Shown: positions 15,212 to 53,799 of the stretch, in pieces | Layout: each line of letters opens with the position of its first letter | How positions within the stretch are numbered: the first letter of the stretch is position 1 | Origin: Solirubrobacterales bacterium | Lineage (GTDB): Bacteria > Actinomycetota > Thermoleophilia > Solirubrobacterales > 70-9 | NCBI GenBank assembly: GCA_020438355.1 | Contig: JAGQUT010000012.1 | Span: forward strand, 1-54,461 | DNA length: 54,461 nt | Direction: 5' to 3' | The notes under the pieces: generated by a model | The model's database searches: none | Told to the model about the DNA's origin: nothing | What the model saw: the letters and a program-made list of their open reading frames with translations, nothing else | Position numbers and translations under genes: made by a program

Positions 15212-17560
15212 ATGCGCAGGGTCACCTTTTCCCGCAATTACACGATTTCGCTTTCGCGTACCTGCCAGTGCTACTGCAAGTACTGCGCCTTCGCGACCCA
15301 TCAGGCTCATGTCCATCCGCCCGAAGAGGTGGAACGCATGCTCGATGAAGCCGTCAGGCGGCGGGCCAAGGAGTTGCTCTTCCTGACCGGCGAGAAGCCG
15401 GAAGTGAACCCGGTCGTGAAGGGACAGCTGCGCTCCTGGGGCCACGAGGACTTCACCTCCTATGTTGTCTGGGCGTGCGAGCGCGCCCTTGAGCGGGGAA
15501 TCCTCCCTCACACCAACATCGGTGCCATCTCCCGGGAAGACATGGCCCGGCTGCGGGAAGTCACTGCGTCCCAGGGTCTGATGCTCGAGTCGGCCTCGGA
15601 GCGACTGATGAAGACGGTCCACGCGGGGTCACCTACCAAGCATCCGGCCCATCGCCTGGAGACCATCGAGGCCGCCGGCCAGCTCAAGGTTCCTTTCACC
15701 ACCGGCATCCTGGTCGGTATTGGCGAAACCCCGGAGGAGCGCATCGAGTCACTCAAGGCGATCGCGGCGCTTCAGCGGAAGTACGGCCACATCCAGGAAG
15801 TGATCATCCAGAACTTCGTGCCGCATCCCCGCTATTACGGCCAGGAGCCGGCAGATATTGCTGCCGCTGCCTCGGATCGCCGCTGGCGTGAGTCGGAGAC
15901 GGTGGTGAGCCTTGATTCCGGGATCGAGCCCGATGCTCCCGGGCAGCAGCTTGACGAGCAGGCAAGGCCCACGATCGCTCTGCCGGACTGGGCCTGCCCG
16001 GTTTCGATCGAAGACCTGAAGCACCTGATTCGGGAGACAGCCAGGCTGATGCCTGACGTCGGCGTCCAGGTGCCGCCCAACCTTTCCGACTGGTGGGCCG
16101 AACTGGTCGAGGCCGGGGCGACTGATCTCGGAGGCCTGTCGGCCAACGGCGATCACATCTCGCCTGAACATCCCTTCCCGAGTCCGAAGCAGGTCAGGGA
16201 GCAGCTGCACCCTCTCGGCTACGCGTTGACCGAGAGGCTCTGCGTCTACCCGCAGTACATGAACGCGGAATGGATGGAGCAGGGCGTTCTCGACGTGATC
16301 AAGCTCAAGTACTGGAGCTTCATTCCGCGCCTCGGTTCCGGCCGGGTGAGCGAAGAGAAGCTGGATCCGGGGCTCGCCATCGAGGCGATCGCCAAGGGTC
16401 GCCAGGGTGAAGAGTTGACCGAGGACGAGCTGACCGCGCTGTTCTCGGAGACCAGGCCCGAGGTGATCGAAGCGATGCGGGTCGCCGCAGACGGACTCCG
16501 CGCCGAGATCGCCGGAGACACGGCCACTTTCGTCGTCAACCGGAACATCAACTTCACCAACATCTGCACCGTCGGCTGCGCTTTCTGTGGGTTCGGTCAG
16601 GGCCGGCGCTCTCCGGACGCCTACGAGTCAACCGAGGAGGAGTTCATCGCCCGGGTCGAGGAAGCGGTCGATTTCGGTGCGACGGAGCTCTGCATGCAGG
16701 GGGGGATACATCCCGACCTTGATCTCGAGGCTTACGGCCGCTGGTTGAAGCTGGCAAAGCAGGTCGCCCCGGATATTCACCTGCATGCGTACTCGCCGAT
16801 GGAGATCAACCACATGTGTGAGGTGGAGGGTCTCGAGCCGGGAGAGGTGTTCGAGTACCTGATCGGCTGCGGACTCGGATCAACCCCCGGTACCGCCGCC
16901 GAGGTCCTTGATGACGGTGTCCGACAGCGGATTTCACCCAACAAGCTGCCCGCCGACCGCTGGGTGGAGATCATCGAGGCATCGCATCGGGCCGGACTGA
17001 AGTCCACTTCGACCGTCATGTTCGGCCACATCGAGGAGCCTCGCGAGCTGGCCCGTCACATGAAGGTGATCCGCGACCTCCAGGGTCGAACTGGAGGGAT
17101 CACCGAGTTCGTGCCCCTCAGCTTCATCCCCTTCAACACCCTTCTCGGCCGTACCCACGGTGTCGAAGAGATCTCTATAGAGGAGAACCTCAAACACACC
17201 GCTGCTTTCCGCCTCGCGCTGGGGAGGTCAGTGACGAACCTTCAGGCCAGCTGGGTGAAGATGGGGCTTCCCGGGGCGACCGAGGCCCTGAACTGGGGCG
17301 TGAACGATCTGGGTGGCACCCTGATGGAGGAGAGCATCTCCCGGATGGCCGGTTCGCAGCACGGAGTTCGGCTCGAAGTCGAGCAGCTCGTCGACGCCGC
17401 TCACAGGGCCGGTCGCCGGGCGGCCCAGCGGAACACCTCGTACGGGATCATCCGTGAGTTCCCCGACCCGGCTTCTTCTCCGCCGCCGGAACTCCTCATA
17501 GACCTTGCTCATCCCGGCGAAGAGCCGGTCGCCGGTCTGGTCGGAAGCGCCGCGGCATAG
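15212..17560 (+). CDS. fbiC: 7,8-didemethyl-8-hydroxy-5-deazariboflavin (FO) synthase, fused CofG-CofH
   Basis: 782 aa with two radical-SAM modules. The N-terminal CofG-like module has CX3CX2C at C18/C22/C25 and the second CofH-like module has it at C452/C456/C459 (CTVGCAFC). The fused arrangement is the bacterial FbiC form. It joins tyrosine and 5-amino-6-ribitylamino-uracil to make FO, the deazaflavin core of coenzyme F420. Other F420 genes lie convergently at 19160-22183. The start ATG at 15212 is close behind divergent cupredoxin. A zinc alcohol dehydrogenase follows after 17 nt on the same strand. Confidence 0.96.
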   Translation: MRRVTFSRNYTISLSRTCQCYCKYCAFATHQAHVHPPEEVERMLDEAVRRRAKELLFLTGEKPEVNPVVKGQLRSWGHEDFTSYVVWACERALERGILPHTNIGAISREDMARLREVTASQGLMLESASERLMKTVHAGSPTKHPAHRLETIEAAGQLKVPFTTGILVGIGETPEERIESLKAIAALQRKYGHIQEVIIQNFVPHPRYYGQEPADIAAAASDRRWRESETVVSLDSGIEPDAPGQQLDEQARPTIALPDWACPVSIEDLKHLIRETARLMPDVGVQVPPNLSDWWAELVEAGATDLGGLSANGDHISPEHPFPSPKQVREQLHPLGYALTERLCVYPQYMNAEWMEQGVLDVIKLKYWSFIPRLGSGRVSEEKLDPGLAIEAIAKGRQGEELTEDELTALFSETRPEVIEAMRVAADGLRAEIAGDTATFVVNRNINFTNICTVGCAFCGFGQGRRSPDAYESTEEEFIARVEEAVDFGATELCMQGGIHPDLDLEAYGRWLKLAKQVAPDIHLHAYSPMEINHMCEVEGLEPGEVFEYLIGCGLGSTPGTAAEVLDDGVRQRISPNKLPADRWVEIIEASHRAGLKSTSTVMFGHIEEPRELARHMKVIRDLQGRTGGITEFVPLSFIPFNTLLGRTHGVEEISIEENLKHTAAFRLALGRSVTNLQASWVKMGLPGATEALNWGVNDLGGTLMEESISRMAGSQHGVRLEVEQLVDAAHRAGRRAAQRNTSYGIIREFPDPASSPPPELLIDLAHPGEEPVAGLVGSAAA

Positions 17561-40529: not shown

Positions 40530-41267
40530 TCAGTCGTTCGAACCTGTTTTCACCGCGACGGAACTGCCGTTGCCGGTTTCGACCAGATAGCTCTCGCCCG
40601 GGCCCAGGGGCGCAGGCGGCACCGCGGCGCCGGTGATCACGACATCGCCAGCCTTGAACGAATCACCAGCGAGATCGACCTGATCCGCCAGAGAGGCGAC
40701 GACCTGGCCAAGGTCGCCGATCACTTCCCGCGGATCGTTCCAAGGGCCCTCGGAGTCATTTGCGGTGACCCTGACCCGGACCTCGGGAAGGCTGTCGGGC
40801 TCCACTTCAAAGAACTCCCCGATGATCACGTGGCGGTGGAAAATGTTGCCGGCGAGAATGTCCTCGACGCTTTCGATCGAACCGAGATCCACCAGTTCGA
40901 TCGATGCGGCCACCGCCCCGATAGCCCTGGCTCCATCCTCAGCCGAAGCCCCGGGACCCAGATCTGTCACAAGGCGCACGGCCACCTCGGGCTCGATTAG
41001 CGGCATTCCCCAGCTGCCGACATCGACCTCTTCGCCCGAGCCGAGGCAGGTTGCCGTGGTCAGGAAACCGGCCAGCGGCTGGACTATCCCCAGCGCCTCA
41101 CGGGCACCTTCGGTTCCGAACCCCGATTTCCAGCCCAGCCGATCGCCCTGCTGGAGGTGCGATTCCCGAAGCGTCTGCTGCCGGCCCATTCCCTTGATCA
41201 CTCTCTCGTCGTTGCGGTTCACGCCCGCAAGTGAATCAGACGATGACTGCCACAGACCCGGGCTCAA
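40530..41267 (-). CDS. 2-keto-4-pentenoate hydratase/fumarylacetoacetase-fold protein
   Basis: 245 aa. MhpD-like pattern: GDRLGWKSGFGTEGAREALGI, then SWGMPLIEPEVAVRLVTDLGPG (the metal-binding Glu block) and SIELVD, ending with GDVVITGAAVPPAPLGPGESYLVE. Family enzymes hydrate 2-hydroxydienoates in aromatic-compound breakdown, or decarboxylate related acids. Start uncertain (TTG at 41267 or GTG at 41222). No dioxygenase nearby, so the pathway is unclear. It overlaps the flavoprotein gene by 4 nt. Confidence 0.8.
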   Translation of the reverse strand: MSPGLWQSSSDSLAGVNRNDERVIKGMGRQQTLRESHLQQGDRLGWKSGFGTEGAREALGIVQPLAGFLTTATCLGSGEEVDVGSWGMPLIEPEVAVRLVTDLGPGASAEDGARAIGAVAASIELVDLGSIESVEDILAGNIFHRHVIIGEFFEVEPDSLPEVRVRVTANDSEGPWNDPREVIGDLGQVVASLADQVDLAGDSFKAGDVVITGAAVPPAPLGPGESYLVETGNGSSVAVKTGSND

Positions 41268-42241
41268 GCGAGAGATTCGAGCGCGGACCGGCAGGAGAGG
41301 AGTGATGCCTCGGTGCCGTCGGCCTCTCCGGCGAGGAACGCATCACCGCACACTCTGACGTTCACCCCGTCTGCAACGGTTTCAAAGTACGGCTGTGAAA
41401 CGGTCCCGGCGCCGTTCGCATATCGCCACTTCATGAGCTGGACCATCCCGGCGGGTATGAAGCCGGTCAGGGGTTCGATCAGGTCGAGTGCGGTCGCGAC
41501 GATCTCGCCTTCGCTTGCCTCGAAGAGATCCCGGCTCTGTTCGGGAGAGAACCGGAAACTGATTCCCGGTTTGACGTCATCGAACTTCATGTAGTCCCTT
41601 ATGACGGTTCCTCCTCCGGTGGGAGCCGTCTGGACGGCGGGACCTTCCGGCAATCGAGCCGGATCGACCCTGACCATGGCGACGATCGCTTCCCGGTAGG
41701 GAGGCTCTTCGATTTCGGGCCAGTCTGGGGTCAGGGCAGCCAGGAGTTCAAGTGCCTGGGGAATCGGGGCCGTAAGGATCAGGTTCTGAACTACCCGCAG
41801 GCTCGTGGTCATCTCGCCCTGCTCGACGGTCAGGCGAAGACTTCCGCTCTCCGGCTCGATCGAGGTCACCTTCGCCGCGTTTCGAACGTTCAGGTCCATG
41901 GCCAGATGTTTGCCCAGGGCCGAGATCCCTGCCGGCGAGTACCAGGCGTCGTTCTCACCGTCGAATCTCTCCATTTGCCGAAGCATGCCGGCAGCCTCAC
42001 CACGGCTGATCAGTTCGCGGGTCAGCGGCCCTTTGTCCGTCAGGAAGGGCAAGCCGTGGTCGAATCTGGAGTCGGCGAAGCGCCTGGTTGCTGCCCGTCC
42101 CCCCGGAGTCCGGCCCTTGTCCACCACCAGATATTCGGCGCCGGAGGCCTCAAGGCTGGCGGCGATCGAGAGGCCCCCGAAGCCCGAACCAATCACACAG
42201 GTCTCGACTGATTGAGGGGGTGGGAGCGGTTCGGCGGTCAC
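41264..42241 (-). CDS. FAD-dependent amine-oxidase-like (renalase-like) flavoprotein
   Basis: 325 aa from GTG at 42241. N-terminal FAD-binding CVIGSGFGGLSIAASLEASGAEYLVVDKGRTPGGRAATRR (residues 14-53), and a C-terminal VRVCGDAFLAGEADGTEASLLSCRSALE, the second FAD block of the family. Relatives oxidise amines or reduced nicotinamide isomers. It overlaps the hydratase-like gene by 4 nt and follows the HxlR gene by 22 nt. Confidence 0.85.
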   Translation of the reverse strand: MTAEPLPPPQSVETCVIGSGFGGLSIAASLEASGAEYLVVDKGRTPGGRAATRRFADSRFDHGLPFLTDKGPLTRELISRGEAAGMLRQMERFDGENDAWYSPAGISALGKHLAMDLNVRNAAKVTSIEPESGSLRLTVEQGEMTTSLRVVQNLILTAPIPQALELLAALTPDWPEIEEPPYREAIVAMVRVDPARLPEGPAVQTAPTGGGTVIRDYMKFDDVKPGISFRFSPEQSRDLFEASEGEIVATALDLIEPLTGFIPAGMVQLMKWRYANGAGTVSQPYFETVADGVNVRVCGDAFLAGEADGTEASLLSCRSALESLA

Positions 42242-42263: not shown

Positions 42264-42941
42264 TCAGGTGCCAGCCGGCTGGACTGCCTCTACCGGGATG
42301 CGGAAGGTCTCCAGGAGGGTGGCGAGCCTTGGCCTGTCTCCCCCGACTTCATTCGAAACCTCGTCGAGCGTGGTTTCTCCGATCGAGACCATCAGAAAGT
42401 CTTCAAGCTCGATTTCCAGGTGGGCGTCCGGGGTGACCTGCGGCAAGCCGTCCCGGAGTTCCGATCTGCCTTCTTTTACTTCCAGCCAGAAGTCTTCGTC
42501 CCCCACCGAGAACGCGTAGATGCCATCGGGGGCGGGGCGAGGGTCACGGTCCATGGTCGCCAGCATCGTCATTGCTGCCCACGATGCCCGCGTGGTGAGG
42601 TCGGGACGTTCGTTGATCGGCGGCATCAGGCCGAGACCCCAGAGGGCGAGATCTTCGAGGATGGGCTGGAGGCCACGGCCCCGTTCGGTCAGCGAGTAGG
42701 CGGTGGTGGAAGCCGGGGGAGGCAGTTCAACTTTCTGCGCGATGCCCGCCTCCTCCAGGGTCTTGAGCCGGCTGGACAGCAGATTGGTCCCGATGCCGTC
42801 CAGGGCGTCCATCAGGTCCTTGAAGCGCTTCGGCCCCCGGGTCAGCTCGCGAATGACCAGCAGGGTCCAGCGTTCGCCAAGAAGGTCGAGGGAAAGGGCA
42901 AGTCCGCAGCGTTGGCCGTATGTGCGTTGAGGAGTTGTCAT
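42264..42941 (-). CDS. HxlR-family transcriptional regulator with SCP2-like C-terminus
   Basis: 225 aa. Winged helix-turn-helix of the HxlR type: CGLALSLDLLGERWTLLVIRELTRGPKRFKDLMDALDGIGTNLLSSRLKTLEEAGI (about 12-70). The C-terminal ~110 residues include FSVGDEDFWLEVKEGRSELRDGL, like a sterol-carrier (SCP2) domain that may bind a hydrophobic ligand. It overlaps the exporter gene by 4 nt, with the exporter first in the transcript. It probably controls the exporter through the palindromes at 44502-44538. Confidence 0.88.
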   Translation of the reverse strand: MTTPQRTYGQRCGLALSLDLLGERWTLLVIRELTRGPKRFKDLMDALDGIGTNLLSSRLKTLEEAGIAQKVELPPPASTTAYSLTERGRGLQPILEDLALWGLGLMPPINERPDLTTRASWAAMTMLATMDRDPRPAPDGIYAFSVGDEDFWLEVKEGRSELRDGLPQVTPDAHLEIELEDFLMVSIGETTLDEVSNEVGGDRPRLATLLETFRIPVEAVQPAGT

Positions 42942-44506
42942 CTCGTTGCCACCGACACTTCATCAACCGGTGCGGCGGCCTGGCCGGATCCGGGGTCCGT
43001 TTCCTCCTGTGGGTGGGCGGGAAGTACGGCGAAACAGAAGATCGCGCCCAGGGCGCAGACTCCGGCTGCTACCAGGCAACCGGCCTGCATGCCGTCAAAG
43101 AATCCAGTCGAGGCGACACTCTGGAGCGTCGAGCTTGCCTGGGTGGCTCCGGCGGCAGCCAGCCGCTCGGCAGCGATCAGGGCTCCGCCGATCGATTCCT
43201 CGGCCGGCTGGAGGGCGGCGTCCGGGATCTGCCTGACCGCTCCTTCAATGAAGGCCTCTTTGTAGAGGGACGCGAAGACGCTGCCGATCACGGCAACGCC
43301 CAGGGTTGCTCCCAGTTCCCGCGTTGCGTCATTGACCGCCGATCCGATCCCTGCCTTGGCGTTGCTTACGGCGCCCATGATGGATTCGGTTGCGGGCGCG
43401 CTGGTCAGGCCCATGCCGGAGCCGAGCACCACCATCTGTCCTGCAATCTCCAGGTAGCTGGTCTCAACGCTTACGGTCGAGATCCACGCGTAAGCAATCG
43501 TCAGCAGCACGAGCCCGCCGCCGACCACGAACTTGGTCCCGAAGCGAACTGCCAGCTGGGTGCCGATGATCGAGGAGATCGCAACCGAGGTTGCCACCGG
43601 AAGCAGTCTCAATCCGGTTTCAAGGGGCCCGTAGTCGAGCAGGAACTGGAAGTACTGCGTGACAAGGAAGATGAATCCGGCGAGGGCGAAGAAGGAGACG
43701 GTCACCGAGACGGAGGCGGCAGAGAACCTCAGGTTGCGGAAGATGTTCACGTCCAGCATCGGCGAGGACACTCTTCGTTCCCAGAGGACAAAGGCCGCCA
43801 TCGCGATCGCACCTCCAGCGAAAAGCAACAGCGTCTGGGTCGAGAGCCAGCCCGCATCGGGTGCCTCGATCAGCGCGTAGACGATCAGTCCGACCATCGC
43901 GGTTGAAAGGCCGAGCCCGGGAAAATCGAGGCGGGGTGCCTCCGGGTCTCGGGAATCAGGGACGAAGGCGGCGACCAGTGCGATCGCGACGATCGCCACC
44001 GGAACCTTGGCGAGGAATGTTGCCGGCCATGAGAAGGTCTCGAGAAGGGCACCGCCGACGATCGGGCCGAGTGCGATTGCGATGCCGGTGCTGGCACCCC
44101 AGAGCCCGATCGCCCGCGCCCTCTCGCCCCGTTCGGTGAAGACGTTGGTGATTATCGAAAGGGTGGTGGGGAAGATGATCGCGGCGCCCACTCCCATGAT
44201 CGCCCGGGTGGCGATCAGGGCGGAGGTGTCCTGCGCGATGGCGCCTGCAGCGTTTCCGATGCCATACACGCAGAGGCCGACTATCAGGGTTCGACGACGC
44301 CCGAAACGGTCTCCGAGACTTCCGGCGGCAAGCACCAGTGCGGCGAAGGTGAGTGTGTATGCGTCGACGATCCACTGCAGTTCCCTGGTGGTCGCCCCGA
44401 GGTCGACGACCAGGGTCGGGAGCGTGACGTTGACGAGAGTCACGTCGAGGTTGACTGCGAATGCGCAGAGGCAGAGGGTCGCGAGGATTACCGGTCGTCG
44501 ATTCAT
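42938..44506 (-). CDS. DHA2-family (14-TM) MFS drug exporter
   Basis: 522 aa with about 14 helices. DHA2 features: N-terminal LDVTLVNVTLPTL (helix-1 motif D1), LGDRFGRRRTLIVG (motif A), RAIMGVGAAIIFPTTLSII (motif B), and GIAIALGPIVGGALLE (motif C, typical of exporters). Such pumps export drugs, dyes or own metabolites by H+ antiport. First gene of a unit with hxlR; its start codon is inside a palindrome. Confidence 0.92.
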   Translation of the reverse strand: MNRRPVILATLCLCAFAVNLDVTLVNVTLPTLVVDLGATTRELQWIVDAYTLTFAALVLAAGSLGDRFGRRRTLIVGLCVYGIGNAAGAIAQDTSALIATRAIMGVGAAIIFPTTLSIITNVFTERGERARAIGLWGASTGIAIALGPIVGGALLETFSWPATFLAKVPVAIVAIALVAAFVPDSRDPEAPRLDFPGLGLSTAMVGLIVYALIEAPDAGWLSTQTLLLFAGGAIAMAAFVLWERRVSSPMLDVNIFRNLRFSAASVSVTVSFFALAGFIFLVTQYFQFLLDYGPLETGLRLLPVATSVAISSIIGTQLAVRFGTKFVVGGGLVLLTIAYAWISTVSVETSYLEIAGQMVVLGSGMGLTSAPATESIMGAVSNAKAGIGSAVNDATRELGATLGVAVIGSVFASLYKEAFIEGAVRQIPDAALQPAEESIGGALIAAERLAAAGATQASSTLQSVASTGFFDGMQAGCLVAAGVCALGAIFCFAVLPAHPQEETDPGSGQAAAPVDEVSVATR

Positions 44507-44538
44507 ACTTGAAAAACATATAGCACTTCAAATATGAA
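44502..44538. promoter_or_regulatory. Tandem TTCA-N4-TGAA operators between exporter and heliorhodopsin
   Basis: Two identical-format 12-bp palindromes, TTCATACTTGAA at 44502-44513 and TTCAAATATGAA at 44527-44538, centre-to-centre distance 25 bp. The first overlaps the exporter start codon; the second is 34 nt before the heliorhodopsin start. The whole segment is strikingly AT-rich. The obvious candidate binder is the HxlR protein encoded with the exporter, as an inference. Confidence 0.7.
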
Positions 44539-44571: not shown

Positions 44572-45321
44572 ATGTCAGTTTCCGGCCTCAGAAAGCTGAA
44601 CATCTTCGCGACGGTTTTCTTTGTTGCCCAGGTGGTGGTCCTTCTGATCGTCGCCAAGCCGGCATCGCTGCCGGTCACCGGCCAGTTCCTGGTCGGACCG
44701 CCAGGGGCCGGCGAGTACGGAAGCACCGAGCTGTTCAGCCTCCGGATCGACCTTCTCGTGGCCCTGTTCCTCGCTCTTGCGGCGATAGATCACCTGCTCG
44801 TCGCCACGATTGGTCGCGGCTGGTACGAGCGGAACATCTCCGAGGGGCGCAATCCGGCGCGCTGGTACGAGTACTCGATCAGCGCTTCGGTGATGATCGT
44901 CCTGATCGCCATGCTCTCTGGCGTCAGCGATGCGGTCGCACTCCTCGCGATCTTCGGGGTGAATGCATCGATGATCCTCTTCGGTCTGGCGATGGAAAGG
45001 GCGAACGCCGGGCGAGAAGAGGTGGACTGGGCCCCGTTCGTCTACGGGTGTATCGCCGGGGCCGTGCCGTGGATCGCGATCGTGATTCAGTTCATCCTTT
45101 CCGGCTCCAATGCCGACGGGGTACCCGGCTTCGTCTATGGAATTTTCGTCACCCTCTTTCTGCTCTTCAACTGCTTTGCCCTCAACATGTGGCTCACCTA
45201 CAGGCGGCGAGGCAGATGGCAGGACCCGCTGTTTGCCGAGAAGGTCTATATCTGGCTGAGCGTCACCGCCAAGACGGCGCTGGCCTGGCAGGTCTACGCG
45301 GGAGCCCTGGCCGGTTCCTGA
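44572..45321 (+). CDS. Heliorhodopsin
   Basis: 249 aa with seven helices. It closely follows the 48C12 heliorhodopsin: VTGQFLVGPPG, RWYEYSISASVMIVLIA, VALLAIFGVNASMILFG, GCIAGAVPWIAIVI, VPGFVYGIFVTLFLLFN and SVTAKTALAWQVYAG. The retinal-binding Lys is K234 and the counterion Glu is E100 (WYEYS). H74 matches 48C12 His80, while the residue at His23 appears to be Phe17. Heliorhodopsins bind retinal, face inside-out relative to type-1 rhodopsins and do not pump ions. No retinal or carotenoid gene is in the window. It is divergent from the DHA2 exporter. Confidence 0.95.
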   Translation: MSVSGLRKLNIFATVFFVAQVVVLLIVAKPASLPVTGQFLVGPPGAGEYGSTELFSLRIDLLVALFLALAAIDHLLVATIGRGWYERNISEGRNPARWYEYSISASVMIVLIAMLSGVSDAVALLAIFGVNASMILFGLAMERANAGREEVDWAPFVYGCIAGAVPWIAIVIQFILSGSNADGVPGFVYGIFVTLFLLFNCFALNMWLTYRRRGRWQDPLFAEKVYIWLSVTAKTALAWQVYAGALAGS

Positions 45322-45426
45322 GCCTCGTTTCAGGGTTCAGGTGCGGTCACGTAGATACCCGACATGTAAATCCGGTAATCTGCGTCGTATGAATAGCGCG
45401 AGCAACACGAAGGGCGTGATCGACTG

Positions 45427-46389
45427 ATGGACGTTCCGTTCTGGGCATGGGCGGCTTTCGTCGCCTTCGTCGCGCTCATGATCTTTCTTGACCTGGCCGT
45501 CCTGCACCGGCACGCCAAGGTGATCGAGTTCCGCGAGGCCGCGTGGATGAGCCTCGGCTGGGTTGCGTTGGCGCTGATCTTCGGCGTAATCGTGTGGATG
45601 ACCGGAGGCGCCGAGTCGGGCGGTGAGTACTTCGCCGGCTACCTGATCGAGAAGGCTCTCTCGGTTGACAACATCTTCGTTTTCGCCCTCATCTTCACCT
45701 ACTTCGCGGTGCCCGCCGAGTACCAGCACAGGGTTCTCGTCTGGGGTGTGATCGGCGCGCTGATCATGAGGGGCATCTTCATCTTCCTCGGGGCCGAGCT
45801 GCTCGAGGCCTGGGATCCGATCGTTTACGTGTTCGCCGCCGTGCTGATCATCACCGGTATCCGGATGGCGACTCACGATAACTCGGAGATGGACCCGTCT
45901 AAGAACGTGATCCTGAGGGCTTTCCGCAGGATGGTGCCAGTCACTGAAAAGTTCCACGGCGCGAAGTTCTGGGTTCGCAAGGAAGAGATCGACCAGTCTG
46001 AAGCTGTCACCGATCGCAGACCTCTGTTCGGCGTCTGGATCGCCACGCCACTCCTCGCAACCGTGGTGATGATCGAGTCCGCTGACCTGGTCTTCGCGAT
46101 CGACTCGATCCCGGCGATCTTCGCGATTACCACCGACACCTTCATCGTCTTCACCTCGAACGCATTCGCCCTGCTGGGCCTTCGGGCTCTCTACTTCATG
46201 CTCTCCGGGGCGATGGAGCGTTTCGTCTACCTCCAGGTAGGGCTGTCGGTAGTTCTCGTGTTCGTCGGCCTCAAGTTCATCTGGGGAGACCTGTTCGGCA
46301 AGGTTCCGATCTGGGTTTCGCTGCCCTTCATAGCGATCGTGGTCGGCGCCTCGATAACTGCGTCACTGCTCAAGACCCGCGAGCGGTGA
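45427..46389 (+). CDS. TerC-family integral membrane protein
   Basis: 320 aa with about nine helices. TerC motifs: LIEKALSVDNIFVFALIFTYF (the acidic EKxLSxDN block), VWGVIGALIMRGIFIFLGAEL, and ATPLLATVVMIESADLVFAIDSIPAIFAIT with the second ESADLVFAxDS block. Relatives such as Alx export manganese or insert membrane proteins. No yybP-ykoY riboswitch is visible upstream. The gene ends 27 nt inside a convergent ORF. It is 105 nt downstream of the heliorhodopsin gene on the same strand. Confidence 0.92.
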   Translation: MDVPFWAWAAFVAFVALMIFLDLAVLHRHAKVIEFREAAWMSLGWVALALIFGVIVWMTGGAESGGEYFAGYLIEKALSVDNIFVFALIFTYFAVPAEYQHRVLVWGVIGALIMRGIFIFLGAELLEAWDPIVYVFAAVLIITGIRMATHDNSEMDPSKNVILRAFRRMVPVTEKFHGAKFWVRKEEIDQSEAVTDRRPLFGVWIATPLLATVVMIESADLVFAIDSIPAIFAITTDTFIVFTSNAFALLGLRALYFMLSGAMERFVYLQVGLSVVLVFVGLKFIWGDLFGKVPIWVSLPFIAIVVGASITASLLKTRER

Positions 46390-48112: not shown

Positions 48113-49284
48113 GGGCGACCTCCTTCCAGTACCCGTGCCGCCATAAGCGCCGCCTTTCTGGTCGGCTCCTGATCCTGGCCGCAGACCGTTACATGGCCAA
48201 GCTTCCGGCCGGGGCGGGGTTCCTTGTCGTAGAGGTGAATCTGGGCACCGGGGATGCCGAGTGCCATTCCCAGGTTCCGGCGTGGGTCTCCACCGGAATG
48301 GCTTCCGACCACGTTCACCGTCACCACGGACGGTGAGACCAGGGAAGGCAGGCCGAGCGGGAGGCCCAGGACGGCCCGAAGATGCTGCTCGAACTGAGAG
48401 GTGACGCAACCTTCCATCGTGTAGTGGCCGGAGTTGTGCGGTCTCAGCGCGAGTTCGTTGACCAGAAGCCCTTCGCTGGTCACGAAGAACTCGACAGCAA
48501 GGATGCCGGTCGCGCCGATGTCCTCGGCGATGTCCGTCGCCATGCCCTGCGCTCTCGCCGCGACGGAAGATGAGACCTTCGCCGGGGCGAGGATCTCCCG
48601 GCACATGGCGTCGCGCTGGACTGTTTCGACGGCCGGGTAAGTGACCCGTTCGCCGTTGGTCGAGCGCACCACGATCACCGCTATCTCCTGAAGGATGTCG
48701 AGGGTGGGCTCGAGGATCAGGCCGTTATCCGGATTCTCGAAGAGGCTTTCGAGTTCGCCCGGTTCCGAGACCTGCCACACGCCCTTGCCGTCGTAGCCTC
48801 CCCTGGCTGCCTTGACCGTGACTGGCAGGCCGTGGTCTTTGGCGAACCGGAGCGCGGCCCCCGAATCGACGGGAGCCTCGAAGGGGGGTAGCGGGTATCC
48901 GAGTTCGTCGAGGCTGATCCTGGCGTGAAGCTTGTCCTGGGCCATCAGCTTGGCGGCCCGGGAGGGTGCCATCCGGATCCCCTCGTTCTCCAGTTGGCTC
49001 AGTATTTCCGGCGGAACACCTTCGTGGTCGAAAGTGAGGACATCGGCACCCTCGGCGAGCCGACGCAGGTCCTCGATCGATTCCGGGCTGCCGATCATGT
49101 GCTCGGCCCCGGCGAGGACCGCGGGATCCCTGTCGCTGGCCGCGAGGACCCTCAGTCTGATGCCGAGCTTGATTGCCGCCTCATGGGTCATCCGGGCGAG
49201 CTGGCCGGCGCCGACCATGGCCACCAGGCTTTTCCCGGTCGAGGCTTCCGGCTTTGCGGTGCTGGTTTCCAGGGTCAGGCTCAT
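48109..49284 (-). CDS. purK: N5-carboxyaminoimidazole ribonucleotide synthase (PurK)
   Basis: 391 aa ATP-grasp enzyme: [14 protein letters not shown] near the N-terminus, [18 protein letters not shown] (ATP-grasp loop), and [32 protein letters not shown] with the metal-binding NE and HNSGH. It uses ATP and bicarbonate to carboxylate AIR, so it is a direct bicarbonate consumer. ATGA overlap with the PII-like gene upstream and GTGA overlap with purE downstream. Confidence 0.95.
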
Positions 49285-49580
49285 TCGAAGTACTCCGGGC
49301 GGCTGACCCAGGTTTCCGTTACGAACATGACCCCGGAAGAGCTTTCGAGGATCGGGCGCAATCCGGCCATCAGTGACTCGATCCGTTCCTCCGGCACGAC
49401 CGTAATCAGCAGCTCCAGAGTGGCCTGTTCGTTGAAGATCAGCCTGCCCTGGTGGTAGCCGCCGTGGCCAAGTCCGGAGACCCCCGAAAGGCTCGTGAAA
49501 CCGGAGGCCCCGTTGGCCCGGAACACCTCCCTTACCGAGTGAGAGTCGGCTCCCTCGACCACGATCTCAACCTTGGTCAT
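49281..49580 (-). CDS. PII-like regulatory protein of the dab operon
   Basis: 99 aa from ATG at 49580; ATGs at 49604, 49625 and 49634 overlap or adjoin the dabA stop and are alternatives. The fold is PII-like: KVEIVVEGADSHSVREVF (first strand and helix), a loop ASGFTSLSGVSGLGHGGYHQGR in the T-loop position, TLELLITVVPEERIESLMAGLRPI and VMFVTETWVSRPEYF. PII-like proteins occur in bicarbonate-transport operons, and the carboxysome-associated CPII senses bicarbonate and adenine nucleotides. It probably modulates DabAB or the operon, inferred from position. Confidence 0.75.
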   Translation of the reverse strand: MTKVEIVVEGADSHSVREVFRANGASGFTSLSGVSGLGHGGYHQGRLIFNEQATLELLITVVPEERIESLMAGLRPILESSSGVMFVTETWVSRPEYFE

Positions 49581-49609
49581 TCTTGAGAGCCCTGCCGTTT
49601 CCATCGTCT

Positions 49610-52186
49610 CTAGCGTGTTTCCCATGGTGTCCATTCACTGTTCCTTTCGCGCCGCATCCAGCCGGATGTGGCGTCTTCCCGGGCTGCCAGGCTCAGCCAG
49701 CCGTTGTCAAATAGGTCCCTCACGGAGGGGTTTCGTTCGATCACCGTCGTGATCCGGTCAAGCGGCGCCTCGATCACCACCAGCAGGCGCATCGGCTCGT
49801 GGACGAGCCGGTCACCATCAGCCAGTGACTGCCAGGGGAGGCCGAGCTTCAGGTCACCGTCCGGTCCCGAGAGCACTCCCACATTGCCGACCGGGTTGTG
49901 GGTGACCTTGGTTCCGGCCCCGAAGACGACCGGTTCGACGGTCGAGAAGTAGTACTGGCAGTTGATCCACTGCGCGACCACCACCGGGGCCGTGAGGATT
50001 GTCTCCAGCGCCTCGCCCTGTGCATCATCGTTCGGGTCGTATGAGTGGAGGAAAGTTCGCCTTCCGAGGTCGACCCCGGCGGTCATTTCACGTGGCCCGA
50101 TGATGAAGGCGGCGTTGCCGGCCAGTCCCCATTCGGGGTAGACCTCGGCCCAGTCCTGCGAGCGTCTGTACACGCCGGCTTCAGCCCGGGAAACTTTGCC
50201 CTTCGGCTGTTCTCCCGGCAGGTCGCGGCTCCTTTCCAGGCTCAGCTTGCCTGTGGCGGCGTCCAGATCCCGAGAGATCCGGTCGAGGTCACCCTTGATC
50301 GCCTCGGGCACCAGTTCCGGCTCGAGGATCTCGACCCGGTCGATCGTCGTGTCGTGTTCGGCGGCGACGAAGAACGTGTCCCCCGGAATTTCGAGCCCTC
50401 TTTCCACCAGCAGCTCTCTTACGTCCTCGCGGTTCAGGATTGCCGCTGCCGCCCGGGCGTTCGGGGCACCCCGGTGGCCTCCGCAAGCCCCGCAATCAAG
50501 GGCCGAGGCGTAAGGGTTGTTCTCGGTTGTGCTGCCGTGCGCGCAGAGGATCACGACCTTTGCGAAGTTGTCCGTGAGGCCCATGGTCTTTAGCGCCACC
50601 TCCGCGAAGAGGACTCTCTCGTCTAGAGGCATGTCCCGCTCGACGTCGATCACGGTAGGTGCCGCCGGCACGGTTTTTTCCCGGAGCCGGGAGCGGATCG
50701 ATCCGAAGGGTCTCGTCGCCAGGGTCCTTGCCGCGGCGACCGGGCCCTTGATCCACCCTGACATCTCGGCCAGTGCGAAGGGAGCGATCACGTTCGATTC
50801 GGCTTCGTGAACTCCGTCCTTTGCCGAGGTGACCGAGTTCTCGCGGGCCAGCCTGCGTTCGCTCTGCTTCTCGGCTCCCTGGAGTGGCTCCTCGAAGACC
50901 GAGCTCTTCGGTTCGATCAGCACGGGGCAGAGGTCGGATGGGCTGTTGCCGGCGAGGTCCTGATACCTGATCGGTACCCCGAAGAAGCCGGCGAAGCCCA
51001 ATGTCTCGTAGTTGCCGCTTTCCTCGAACTTCCTCCTGAGTCCCTCTGACCGGACGTCGATGCAGCAGACGAGCTGGGCGTCCGGCCTTTCCTCCGTCTC
51101 GTCCCTGGGCCTCTCGAGTTCATGGAGCAGGGAGGACCGGTAGTTCTCCTCGTAGGCTTCCTGCCAGATCTGTGTCCGTTCGCGTGGCGGCAGTTTGGCC
51201 AGCAGTCCGTCGATCGCGGAGAGTTCATCCTGATTTGAGCCAGGGAGCGCACCGAGTGCGGTCAGGACGGCGACCGTGCGACCGCGTTCGGGCGCTGGCT
51301 GCCATCCGTCATGGCTGTCGGGATGGATGTATGGAACCGGGAGGCTGACGCTCTTCGCTTCGAGCAGGGCCGCTTCGATCGCGACCCGCATGGCCAGGTA
51401 AGAGACGAGGTCGATTCCCTCGTCGGTCTCGGAGATCCGGATCACCAGTGAGGTCCAGCCCGGCATCGCACCGACATGGGACCGGAGGTAGTCCTGGTTT
51501 GCGTGCGAAGGCACCCCGATCTTCTCGATCGCATCGAGCAGGGCGTCCTCGGGACGGTCGGGCAGATCGGTCAGTGCCTTCCTCGCCTTCGCCGGAAGCG
51601 TCCGGTCCAGACCGATCAGTTCACGCCAGGCGGAGTAGAAGCCAAGCTCTCGTCCCGGCATGGGCCATCCGGCCGATTCGGCCCCGAGGTAGGCAGCGCA
51701 CCACTTGCTGCTCTCCTCGTTCATCTGGTCGAACACCCCCGGCTCGAAGCGTTCGCTTGCCGTGAGGTAGGTCCGGACAGGCGCAGGAGCCTCTTCGCCC
51801 ACCATCAGGTCTGTCAGGAATATGGCTTCCGGGCTGAACCGCTCCCGGCCGATCGCCAGGGGGGGAGAGTTGAGAACGTCACCCAGCCGTCGCCGGAGAG
51901 CTGACCTCAGGTCTTCCTCACCGATTCGACCAGTCTCGCGCTGCTTGCGGTACCAGCCTTCGCTCATCGTGCCCCTCGCACCGAGCGTCTGACCGGCGAT
52001 CCTCACCGCTTCCTCGAACCTCTCCTGTTCGAGCGAGCGCAGCGGGTTGACGGCGATGAAGGTCTCCAGCGGCCAGGACTTGGCAATTACCGAGCCGGCG
52101 ACCTCGGCATCGGCCCGGACCCGTGAGCGGTCTGCCTCGGTGCGCGAAGGCGCCGTTGAATCGATGGTCTCGACTGCGTTTATCAT
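49610..52186 (-). CDS. dabA: DabA (DUF2309), zinc protein of the DAB inorganic-carbon pump
   Basis: 858 aa from ATG at 52186, with AGGAGG upstream; the longer frame is antisense. It carries the four residues of the zinc/active site: C375-I-D377 (CCIDVRSEG), H550 and C565 (AHGSTTENN...LDCGACGG). His and the last Cys are 15 apart, as in Halothiobacillus DabA (H524/C539). DabA is a beta-carbonic-anhydrase-like subunit that with DabB converts CO2 to bicarbonate in a one-way, energy-driven manner. Middle of a 4-nt-overlap operon. Confidence 0.94.
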   Translation of the reverse strand: MINAVETIDSTAPSRTEADRSRVRADAEVAGSVIAKSWPLETFIAVNPLRSLEQERFEEAVRIAGQTLGARGTMSEGWYRKQRETGRIGEEDLRSALRRRLGDVLNSPPLAIGRERFSPEAIFLTDLMVGEEAPAPVRTYLTASERFEPGVFDQMNEESSKWCAAYLGAESAGWPMPGRELGFYSAWRELIGLDRTLPAKARKALTDLPDRPEDALLDAIEKIGVPSHANQDYLRSHVGAMPGWTSLVIRISETDEGIDLVSYLAMRVAIEAALLEAKSVSLPVPYIHPDSHDGWQPAPERGRTVAVLTALGALPGSNQDELSAIDGLLAKLPPRERTQIWQEAYEENYRSSLLHELERPRDETEERPDAQLVCCIDVRSEGLRRKFEESGNYETLGFAGFFGVPIRYQDLAGNSPSDLCPVLIEPKSSVFEEPLQGAEKQSERRLARENSVTSAKDGVHEAESNVIAPFALAEMSGWIKGPVAAARTLATRPFGSIRSRLREKTVPAAPTVIDVERDMPLDERVLFAEVALKTMGLTDNFAKVVILCAHGSTTENNPYASALDCGACGGHRGAPNARAAAAILNREDVRELLVERGLEIPGDTFFVAAEHDTTIDRVEILEPELVPEAIKGDLDRISRDLDAATGKLSLERSRDLPGEQPKGKVSRAEAGVYRRSQDWAEVYPEWGLAGNAAFIIGPREMTAGVDLGRRTFLHSYDPNDDAQGEALETILTAPVVVAQWINCQYYFSTVEPVVFGAGTKVTHNPVGNVGVLSGPDGDLKLGLPWQSLADGDRLVHEPMRLLVVIEAPLDRITTVIERNPSVRDLFDNGWLSLAAREDATSGWMRRERNSEWTPWETR

Positions 52187-53769
52187 CGTGCCTCCTGAGA
52201 GCGCGGCATAAGAGTGCCGGTGCCCGTGAGTTGTCGTTCGGTGGAGCCGCGGCCCGCCCGCGAGCGGCCGGTCCTGGCGGCGTTGAGTGCCTGTACGTAG
52301 GCTGCTGCGTCGACCTTGCCGGGAAGGCTCATCCGCCCGGACCTGATGATCAGGCCCGCGACCGCGACCGGCACGAAGGCGAGCAGCCAGAGCGGTGAAA
52401 CGACCGAGGCTGTCTCGAGCGGAATCGTGCTCCCGAGGTAGTCGTAGGCCAGCGAGATGAGTCCGACGTACCCGGCGGCAGCCAGGGCGAGGAGTGCGGC
52501 ACCGGAGGCCATGCCCCGAAGCCCGTCGCTTCTCCGGATCCATCCCCAGGCACCCCATGCCAGCGTGGCCCATGCGAAGGCGAGGATCGCGCCATTGGTC
52601 CAGTCAAGGTCGGGGTACCAGGCCAGGGCGAATGCCGAGAGGAGTGCCGCCGGAGCGAGTACGGCGAATCCGACGCTCGCCAGTGAGGCCTTCTTGGCCG
52701 GAGGGTGCGGCTTGGCGATTCGAGACGTCTCCGACGTGACGGCCGACCCTGAACCGAGGAAGAGAGACGCCTTGTAGAGGCTGTGGCCGATCAGGTGGAA
52801 GATCGTTGCCACCCAGGCTCCCAGTCCGCAGGTCATGATCATGAAGCCCATCTGACCGGAGGTGGAATGGGCAAGCGAACCCTTCACATCCGGCCGCGCG
52901 ATCATCGCGGCGGTTGCGTAGATCGCTGTGGCGGCACCGGCCGCGAAGGCAAGGTGCGTCGCCAGCGGGGATCCGGTGAACATGCCGCTCGTTTTCAGCA
53001 GCAGGATGCCTCCCGCGTTCACCACTCCCGCGTGGAGCAGAGCGGAAACCGGTGTGGGGACGGCGATCGTGCCCGGCAGCCAGGAGCGGAATGGCAGCTG
53101 AGCGGAGCGCGATAGCGCCGCGATCACGAGCAGTACGGCGACCAGCGCGGCGATGGTCTCCTGGCCGCCGACCGCTTCGGTGCCGATCCCCAGCAGCGCC
53201 TGATCGCTGACGCCGGCGATGCTCAGGATCACCGCGGCCCAGAGGGCAAGGTCACCTGCTGCGAAGACGAGCAGTGTGGAGCGTCGTCCTTCGTCGGCAC
53301 TGCGAAAGCCGGGGTACATGCCGAGCAGTGCGATCACTGCGAGTCCAGAACCGGTCCACCCGACCGCCAGGGTGGCGGGCGTCTCGGCCGAGACCATCAG
53401 AGCGGTGGATGCGGTGAGCAGACCGGCCCCGAGGAAGAAGCGGCCGAACCTGATGTCGCCGTGGAGGTAGCGTGACGCGAATGCCTGGACTACGCAGCTG
53501 ACCGCGGTGACCAGCACCAGAAGCGGCGCGAGCAGGGGGTCAACGCCGACTCCGAAATCGATGCCGAGCACCGTCATCGTTTGAACCGCGTCCTCGGGGC
53601 CCGCGATCAGGACGCCGAACATGAAGAGTGAGAGGAGGCCGCCGAGCCCGGCGCCTGCGGCCCCGACAAATCCAGCTGCCCGGCTGGTCGGTTGTCGAGA
53701 GGCGATCAGTGCCGCGAGGGCCGGAGCGAGGACGACGAGGACGGTGGAGACACCTAGCATCTGATTCAT
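52183..53769 (-). CDS. dabB: DabB, NuoL-like membrane subunit of the DAB inorganic-carbon pump
   Basis: 528 aa from ATG at 53769, with about 13 helices and the antiporter-like core of NuoL/MrpA: a region PFRSWLPGTIAVPTPVSALLHAGVVNAGGILLLK and AHSTSGQMGFMIMTCGLGAW. In DAB operons a truncated NuoL-type protein pairs with DabA and couples a cation gradient to bicarbonate production. It overlaps dabA by 4 nt. A TATTAT box just upstream puts transcription start near the ATG, suggesting a leaderless message. Confidence 0.92.
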   Translation of the reverse strand: MNQMLGVSTVLVVLAPALAALIASRQPTSRAAGFVGAAGAGLGGLLSLFMFGVLIAGPEDAVQTMTVLGIDFGVGVDPLLAPLLVLVTAVSCVVQAFASRYLHGDIRFGRFFLGAGLLTASTALMVSAETPATLAVGWTGSGLAVIALLGMYPGFRSADEGRRSTLLVFAAGDLALWAAVILSIAGVSDQALLGIGTEAVGGQETIAALVAVLLVIAALSRSAQLPFRSWLPGTIAVPTPVSALLHAGVVNAGGILLLKTSGMFTGSPLATHLAFAAGAATAIYATAAMIARPDVKGSLAHSTSGQMGFMIMTCGLGAWVATIFHLIGHSLYKASLFLGSGSAVTSETSRIAKPHPPAKKASLASVGFAVLAPAALLSAFALAWYPDLDWTNGAILAFAWATLAWGAWGWIRRSDGLRGMASGAALLALAAAGYVGLISLAYDYLGSTIPLETASVVSPLWLLAFVPVAVAGLIIRSGRMSLPGKVDAAAYVQALNAARTGRSRAGRGSTERQLTGTGTLMPRSQEAR

Positions 53770-53776
53770 GCGACGC

Positions 53777-53782
53777 ATAATA
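53777..53782 (-). promoter_or_regulatory. -10 box of dabB promoter (leaderless)
   Basis: On the minus strand TATTAT lies 7 nt before the dabB ATG at 53769, which is the distance of a typical -10 box to a start site at the ATG itself. No ribosome-binding site precedes the ATG. Prediction from spacing only. Confidence 0.5.
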
Positions 53783-53799
53783 CACGAAATAGAAGTCAT

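What the first reader, a model, noticed from the sequence alone, without database searches (positions are those of the whole stretch)
44572..45321. Heliorhodopsin next to a multidrug exporter and HxlR regulator
A full-length heliorhodopsin (K234, E100 present) is encoded divergently from a DHA2 exporter. Heliorhodopsin function is unsettled, and genomic context is a main clue. No retinal-synthesis gene is nearby. The His of 48C12 at position 23 appears to be Phe here while His80 is kept, a difference in the cytoplasmic polar cluster.
Basis: partly seen in the sequence, partly recalled or inferred. Interest (0 to 1): 0.7.

Follow-up and report, generated by a model that had tools for sequence, protein, structure and literature searches.

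The report
Heliorhodopsin with species-specific exporter neighbours
A soil-type actinobacterium carries a genuine light-sensing heliorhodopsin, but the drug exporter and regulator beside it sit next to it in no related genome, so that link is probably accidental; the more useful feature is a histidine-to-phenylalanine change shared by the whole clade at a site thought to matter for the light cycle.

Summary
The heliorhodopsin (HeR) is real: PF18761 at 301.7 bits, about 47% identical to 48C12, fold matching solved HeRs. The residues named are right (K234=K241, E100=E107, H74=H80, F17=H23). DHA2 exporter and HxlR are where stated.

The functional reading is not supported. Neither the HxlR nor an orthologous DHA2 gene accompanies HeR in 9 genus/family loci or about 170 further actinobacterial loci; DHA2 hits near HeR are at the chance rate (6 seen, 5.9 expected). 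TerC does not recur in the genus either. In four genus relatives HeR is followed at 4-59 bp by a photolyase-related gene (DPRP); this genome lacks it.

Two points survive. The 65-bp divergent promoter holds the window's only two TTCA-N4-TGAA palindromes, 25 bp apart: a plausible HxlR operator that might co-regulate HeR in this species. All 10 clade HeRs are F23/A76/H80 (one origin); elsewhere H80 is lost, to Leu, only together with H23, in three origins. No Blh-type retinal-forming gene was found; an unlinked carotenoid dioxygenase exists. Verdict: new member of a known kind.

The parts
44572..45321 (+). heliorhodopsin, 249 aa; codons of F17 (=H23 of 48C12) 44620-44622, H74 (=H80) 44791-44793, E100 (=E107) 44869-44871, K234 (=K241) 45271-45273
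   Evidence: PF18761 301.7 bits; 6su3 E 1.7e-63; fold match to HeR structures; residues
44507..44571 (.). 65-bp divergent intergenic region between the DHA2 and HeR start codons; 43% GC against about 64% around it; must hold both promoters if each gene has its own
   Evidence: sequence; composition
44502..44513 (.). palindrome TTCATACTTGAA (TTCA-N4-TGAA), overlaps the DHA2 start codon; candidate HxlR operator, copy 1
   Evidence: only two such sites in 54 kb, 0.26 expected; null for any repeated palindrome of this kind about 0.003
44527..44538 (.). palindrome TTCAAATATGAA (TTCA-N4-TGAA), 25 bp from the first; candidate HxlR operator, copy 2
42938..44506 (-). DHA2-type MFS exporter (SmvA/LfrA/EmrB-like), divergent from HeR
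   Evidence: PF07690 174.7 bits; TIGR00711 233.1 bits over its cut-off 230.2; SmvA and LfrA models match but under their cut-offs
42264..42941 (-). HxlR-family regulator with a Cys at position 12; overlaps the end of DHA2 (same operon)
   Evidence: PF01638 75.7 bits; sub-cut-off likeness to redox regulators RrpB/RrpA
41264..42241 (-). NAD(P)/FAD-dependent amine-oxidase-like protein, probably the same minus-strand operon
   Evidence: PF13450, PF01593
40530..41267 (-). FAA-hydrolase-fold protein resembling 2-oxopent-4-enoate hydratase; overlaps the previous gene
   Evidence: PF01557; TIGR03220 below its cut-off
45427..46389 (+).
   Evidence: TIGR03718 394.8 bits; no terminator-like or promoter-like site and no Rfam match between the genes; no orthologue in 17 same-genus genomes, closest 45%

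Best explanation
This is an ordinary, vertically inherited heliorhodopsin of a Solirubrobacterales clade. Shown: family, predicted fold, the retinal lysine, the counter-ion and its place in the tree. Inferred: it binds retinal, runs a slow non-pumping photocycle and passes the light state to a partner protein by contact, as reported for other HeRs. In the clade the most likely original partner is a DPRP photolyase-related protein encoded directly downstream; this species lacks that gene, and HeR now sits between a DHA2-HxlR exporter operon and a TerC gene. The exporter operon is probably a separate cassette that its own HxlR represses through the two palindromes between DHA2 and HeR. Any HeR-exporter link would therefore be shared transcription in this one lineage, not a conserved light-controlled exporter. 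Because H23 and S76 are replaced by F and A, the proposed H80-H23-Q26-W246 relay cannot run through position 23 here; the expected result is an altered, probably slower photocycle with H80 and E107 still in place.
For: Family and fold. Vertical inheritance: the window HeR is sister to that of G006 (84% identity) inside a 10-row clade with 99% support, all from the same genus plus one sister genus. Non-recurrence of DHA2/HxlR/TerC. Background density of DHA2. Neither the window DHA2 (best 36%) nor its TerC (best 45%) has an orthologue in 17 same-genus genomes. DPRP: in 4 of 18 genus genomes, all HeR carriers, each 4-59 bp downstream on the same strand, absent from the own genome. Palindromes. 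F23/A76 in 10 of 10. Published partner regulation: glutamine synthetase PMC9529153, photolyase PMC9769723, ABC transporter PMC11109279. H23F of 48C12 slows the photocycle but M still forms (PMC9726877).
Against: DPRP adjacency covers only 4 of 9 HeR genomes in the genus and its co-occurrence with HeR is not significant (Fisher p = 0.08), so the original partner is uncertain. The closest relative G006 also lacks DPRP, but is only 81% complete. A HeR-controlled multidrug transporter is reported elsewhere (PMC11109279), so an exporter partner is not absurd. The effect of F23/A76 is deduced from 48C12 mutants, not measured here. The HxlR operator is a sequence inference.
Confidence: 0.6

Rival explanations
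1. HeR is a light-dependent modulator of the DHA2 exporter, or its gene is a true member of an HxlR regulon: HxlR senses an electrophile or drug and releases both promoters in the 65-bp region, so that exporter and photosensor appear together.
For: Short divergent promoter with two palindromes of one type, the only two in 54 kb; HxlR lies in the exporter operon and has a Cys near its N terminus; precedent of a HeR enhancing a multidrug ABC transporter (PMC11109279).
Against: The arrangement occurs in no other HeR locus examined; DHA2 density near HeR equals background; one palindrome overlaps the DHA2 start codon, so the site may serve DHA2 alone.
Confidence: 0.15
2. HeR and TerC form a two-gene operon in which the light state modulates a metal transporter of the TerC/Alx family.
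For: Same strand, 105-bp gap, no terminator or promoter match between them; TerC is one of ten recurring HeR operon partners listed in PMC11109279; two further class loci have TerC within about 6 kb of HeR (L130, L141).
Against: L141 is convergent and in L130 TerC lies about 4 kb beyond HeR; none of 80 further phylum loci has it; the window TerC has no orthologue in the genus; the gap is wider than typical operon spacing.
Confidence: 0.15
3. HeR works alone here or with an unlinked partner, and all present and ancestral neighbours are irrelevant.
For: HeR contexts change from genus to genus across the class; no single neighbour family is widespread; the published survey finds HeR in a shared operon in only 38.6% of cases (PMC11109279).
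Against: Within genera contexts are conserved (for example 7 loci with the same downstream gene in one genus), which suggests local partners at least sometimes.
Confidence: 0.35

Closest known systems
48C12 heliorhodopsin (6SU3, 6UH3)
   Same: Full-length homology, about 47% identity, same fold, retinal Lys, counter-ion Glu, H80, Q26, W246
   Different: F at H23, A at S76 and S112; different host lineage
Thermoplasmatales HeR TaHeR (6IS6, 7U55)
   Same: Same fold, 43-44% identity
   Different: The archaeal (and one Chloroflexi) HeRs examined all keep both His of the pair (18 of 18)
HeR-photolyase pairs (Trichococcus TfHeR-TfPHR, PMC9769723)
   Same: Genus relatives of the window have a photolyase-related gene directly downstream of HeR
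   Different: The relatives' gene is of the DPRP family (PF04244), not a class II CPD photolyase; the window genome lacks it
Ornithinimicrobium cerasi HeR with multidrug ABC transporter OmrDE (PMC11109279)
   Same: A HeR gene next to a multidrug exporter gene
   Different: There an ABC heterodimer in the HeR operon; here a DHA2 MFS exporter on the opposite strand, with no recurrence
HxlR/YodB-type redox regulators
   Same: HxlR domain, Cys near the N terminus, encoded with the gene it would control
   Different: Longer C-terminal part; operator untested; only weak likeness to named members

Membership tests
Heliorhodopsin (type-3 rhodopsin, PF18761) | Full-length match to the family model | tested here: met
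   301.7 bits against cut-off 26.7, 1-242/242
Heliorhodopsin (type-3 rhodopsin, PF18761) | Seven-helix fold with A-B loop sheet, matching solved HeRs better than type-1 rhodopsins | tested here: met
   Ten best PDB matches are all HeRs, E 1e-18 to 1e-21; best type-1 rhodopsin E 1e-4
Heliorhodopsin (type-3 rhodopsin, PF18761) | Retinal-binding Lys in helix 7 (SxxxK) and Glu counter-ion in helix 3 | tested here: met
   S230/K234 and E100 align to S237/K241 and E107
Heliorhodopsin (type-3 rhodopsin, PF18761) | His23-His80 polar pair as in 48C12 (common, but not a defining feature: 47 of 196 HeRs have another residue at 23) | tested here: not met
   F17/H74 here; counts
Heliorhodopsin (type-3 rhodopsin, PF18761) | Binds retinal, slow photocycle, inverted membrane topology | not testable with these tools
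   Needs expression, spectroscopy and topology mapping
HeR-multidrug transporter functional unit | Exporter gene in the same operon as HeR | tested here: not met
   DHA2 is on the opposite strand
HeR-multidrug transporter functional unit | Adjacency conserved in related genomes | tested here: not met
   No adjacent DHA2 in the 9 genus/family loci; distant homologues (25-28%) adjacent in only 3 of about 170 further loci, at background
HeR-TerC operon group (PMC11109279) | TerC gene co-directional and adjacent to HeR | tested here: met
   45427-46389 (+), 105 bp downstream
HeR-TerC operon group (PMC11109279) | Adjacency conserved, transcript shared | tested here: inconclusive
   Not conserved in the genus; no terminator seen; transcript not testable
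HxlR-autoregulated exporter cassette | HxlR gene coupled to the exporter, plus a repeated palindrome in front of the operon | tested here: met
   Overlap 42938-42941; two TTCA-N4-TGAA sites
HxlR-autoregulated exporter cassette | HxlR binds those sites | not testable with these tools
   Needs footprinting

The most novel reading that the evidence does not exclude
In this clade HeR is a natural H23F/S76A variant that still signals, showing that the His23 arm of the proposed proton relay is dispensable; and in this one species its expression has been captured by an electrophile- or drug-sensing HxlR through a shared divergent operator, tying a photosensor to exporter induction.
Probability: 0.15. 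Interest if true: 0.55.

Novelty: new member of a known kind. Interest (0 to 1): 0.33.

Why it matters
HeR function is still open and gene neighbourhoods are a main clue; this case shows how easily a single neighbourhood misleads. The clade also supplies natural single-site variants (F23 or A23 with H80 kept), and other lineages supply independent double variants (L23 with L80), which make the proposed His23/His80 proton acceptor testable on natural proteins.

Tried and rejected
Exporter/HxlR as a conserved partner: rejected on synteny and background density. TerC as a conserved partner in the genus: rejected. A riboswitch before TerC (TerC-family genes often have one, own knowledge): no Rfam match. 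Local or genomic retinal synthesis by a Blh/Brp-type (BCD) enzyme: not found; the family did ring in 11 of 198 phylum genomes as a control. An unlinked RPE65-type dioxygenase as a HeR-coupled retinal source: present in the own genome but not correlated with HeR in the genus (2 of 9 HeR genomes, 5 of 9 without; p = 0.33). Its nearest solved relative is the archaeal CCD 6VCF and its best NCBIfam model, well below cut-off, is an 8'-apo-carotenoid 13,14-cleaving dioxygenase, so retinal as its product is unproven. The same palindrome in front of other DHA2 genes of the genus: in 9 loci only one lone site (L197), so it is not a general DHA2 operator. A wider shared block around HeR: purK/purE lies within about 10 kb of HeR in two relatives but in the opposite orientation relative to HeR, and nothing else is shared.

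Full report
Observation. The ORF at 44572-45321 (+) is a full-length heliorhodopsin: PF18761 at 301.7 bits over all 242 model positions, the only one in the genome, with 48C12 and TaHeR as solved relatives. An AlphaFold2 model built on 24 HeRs has mean pLDDT 92.5, seven helices and the A-B sheet, and its ten best PDB matches are all heliorhodopsins. By alignment K234, E100, H74, Q20 and W239 equal K241, E107, H80, Q26 and W246 of 48C12, and F17 replaces H23.

Surroundings. On the minus strand, diverging from HeR across 65 bp, lie DHA2 (42938-44506), HxlR (42264-42941, overlapping), an amine-oxidase-like flavoprotein and a hydratase-like protein, probably one operon. Beyond it are FabI-like, PurE, PurK, P-II, DabA and DabB-like genes, all on the minus strand.

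Which genome. HeR occurs in 9 of 18 genomes of the window's genus, in 34 of 232 of its order and in 100 of 399 sampled from its class, counting matches over the family cut-off.

Neighbourhood test. I fetched 100 HeR loci from the order and class, the genus included, 80 more from the phylum and 22 from named genomes. No homologue of the window's HxlR is near HeR in the first 122 loci even at E 0.01, nor in the 80 phylum loci at E 1e-6. DHA2 homologues are near HeR in 6 of the 100 loci; the genus density of 5.3 per Mb predicts 5.9 in the 1.1 Mb examined (the two searches used different thresholds, so this is approximate). Two of those six, and one phylum locus, have a distant DHA2 homologue (25-28%) as the next gene after HeR. 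TerC is near in 2 of 100 and 0 of 80. Neither the window's DHA2 nor its TerC has an orthologue in 17 same-genus genomes (best 36% and 45%). The arrangement is thus particular to this species or a very narrow lineage.

What relatives have instead. In four same-genus genomes (G005, G014, G015, G016) the gene after HeR, same strand and 4-59 bp away, is a deoxyribodipyrimidine photolyase-related protein (PF04244, 176.5 bits); in a sister genus it is 2.1 kb away. In the genus this protein occurs only in those four genomes; the link to HeR presence is suggestive, not significant (p = 0.08). A photolyase partner is known for HeR in Trichococcus (PMC9769723). The window genome has no such gene.

The shared promoter. 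The 65-bp region is 43% GC. An open repeat search found two 12-bp palindromes of the form TTCA-N4-TGAA 25 bp apart, the only two in the 54-kb window (0.26 expected). A simulation that asks for any repeated palindrome of this kind in random sequence of the same composition finds one in 0.3% of trials. I read this as a double operator of the adjacent HxlR (inference). It makes co-regulation of HeR and exporter possible in this species, but one site overlaps the DHA2 start codon, so DHA2 is the obvious target.

Position 23. Among 196 aligned HeRs (48C12 included), F23 occurs in all 10 members of the window's clade and nowhere else, A23 in 7 of another genus, L23 in 30. On a tree of 192 rows F23 and A23 each form a clade, and the change H80 to L needs three events. 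Every L23 protein also has L80 and every L80 protein with a readable position 23 has L23 (30 of 30), while F23 and A23 proteins keep H80. Three origins are too few for a significant sign test. In 48C12, H23F slows the photocycle but M still forms, and calculations place S76 and H23 in the proton path (PMC9726877). The window clade lacks both, so it is a natural test of that model. I found no paper in the library that discusses this natural variation, which is a limited search.

Retinal supply. No BCD (Blh/Brp) gene was found in the genome or genus, with a positive control in the phylum. An RPE65-type dioxygenase lies on another contig but does not track HeR. Whether retinal is scavenged or made by that enzyme is undecided.

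Verdict. This is a new member of a known kind with a modestly interesting clade-level substitution.

Noticed in passing
L131, L136, L138, L141, L142, L144 and others of the class; L228, L237, L238, L239, L245, L247, L256, L259, L264: In 30 of 196 HeRs both H23 and H80 are Leu together, in three separate places on the tree; H80 was never seen replaced with H23 kept.
   Followed up: partly
L083 9650-11086; L087, L089, L090: HeR followed at 4-59 bp by a DPRP photolyase-related gene, then (L083, L087, L090) a gene that looks like tryptophan synthase beta chain, in same-genus relatives of the window.
   Followed up: partly
L095, L097, L098, L100, L101, L104 (genus g23): In another genus of the order HeR has A23 and a conserved neighbourhood: an unnamed protein of about 200 aa directly downstream (7 loci) and a pentapeptide-repeat-like protein divergent upstream (6 loci).
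   Followed up: no
L172-L178 (genus g65): Genes that look, by eye, like 2-oxoacid:ferredoxin oxidoreductase subunits follow HeR on the same strand.
   Followed up: no
window 49281-53799: P-II protein, DabA and an NADH-dehydrogenase-5-like (DabB) gene in a row on the minus strand: a DAB-type inorganic carbon uptake system.
   Followed up: no
window 15212-17557: Fused radical-SAM protein with CofH C-terminal region, probably FbiC of coenzyme F420 synthesis.
   Followed up: no
window 45389-45427: A 12-codon ORF (ATG...TGA) ends overlapping the TerC start codon (TGATG); a possible leader peptide.
   Followed up: no
own genome G000 contig C100 87762-89141: RPE65-family carotenoid cleavage dioxygenase, closest solved relative 6VCF; possible apocarotenoid or retinal source.
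   Followed up: partly
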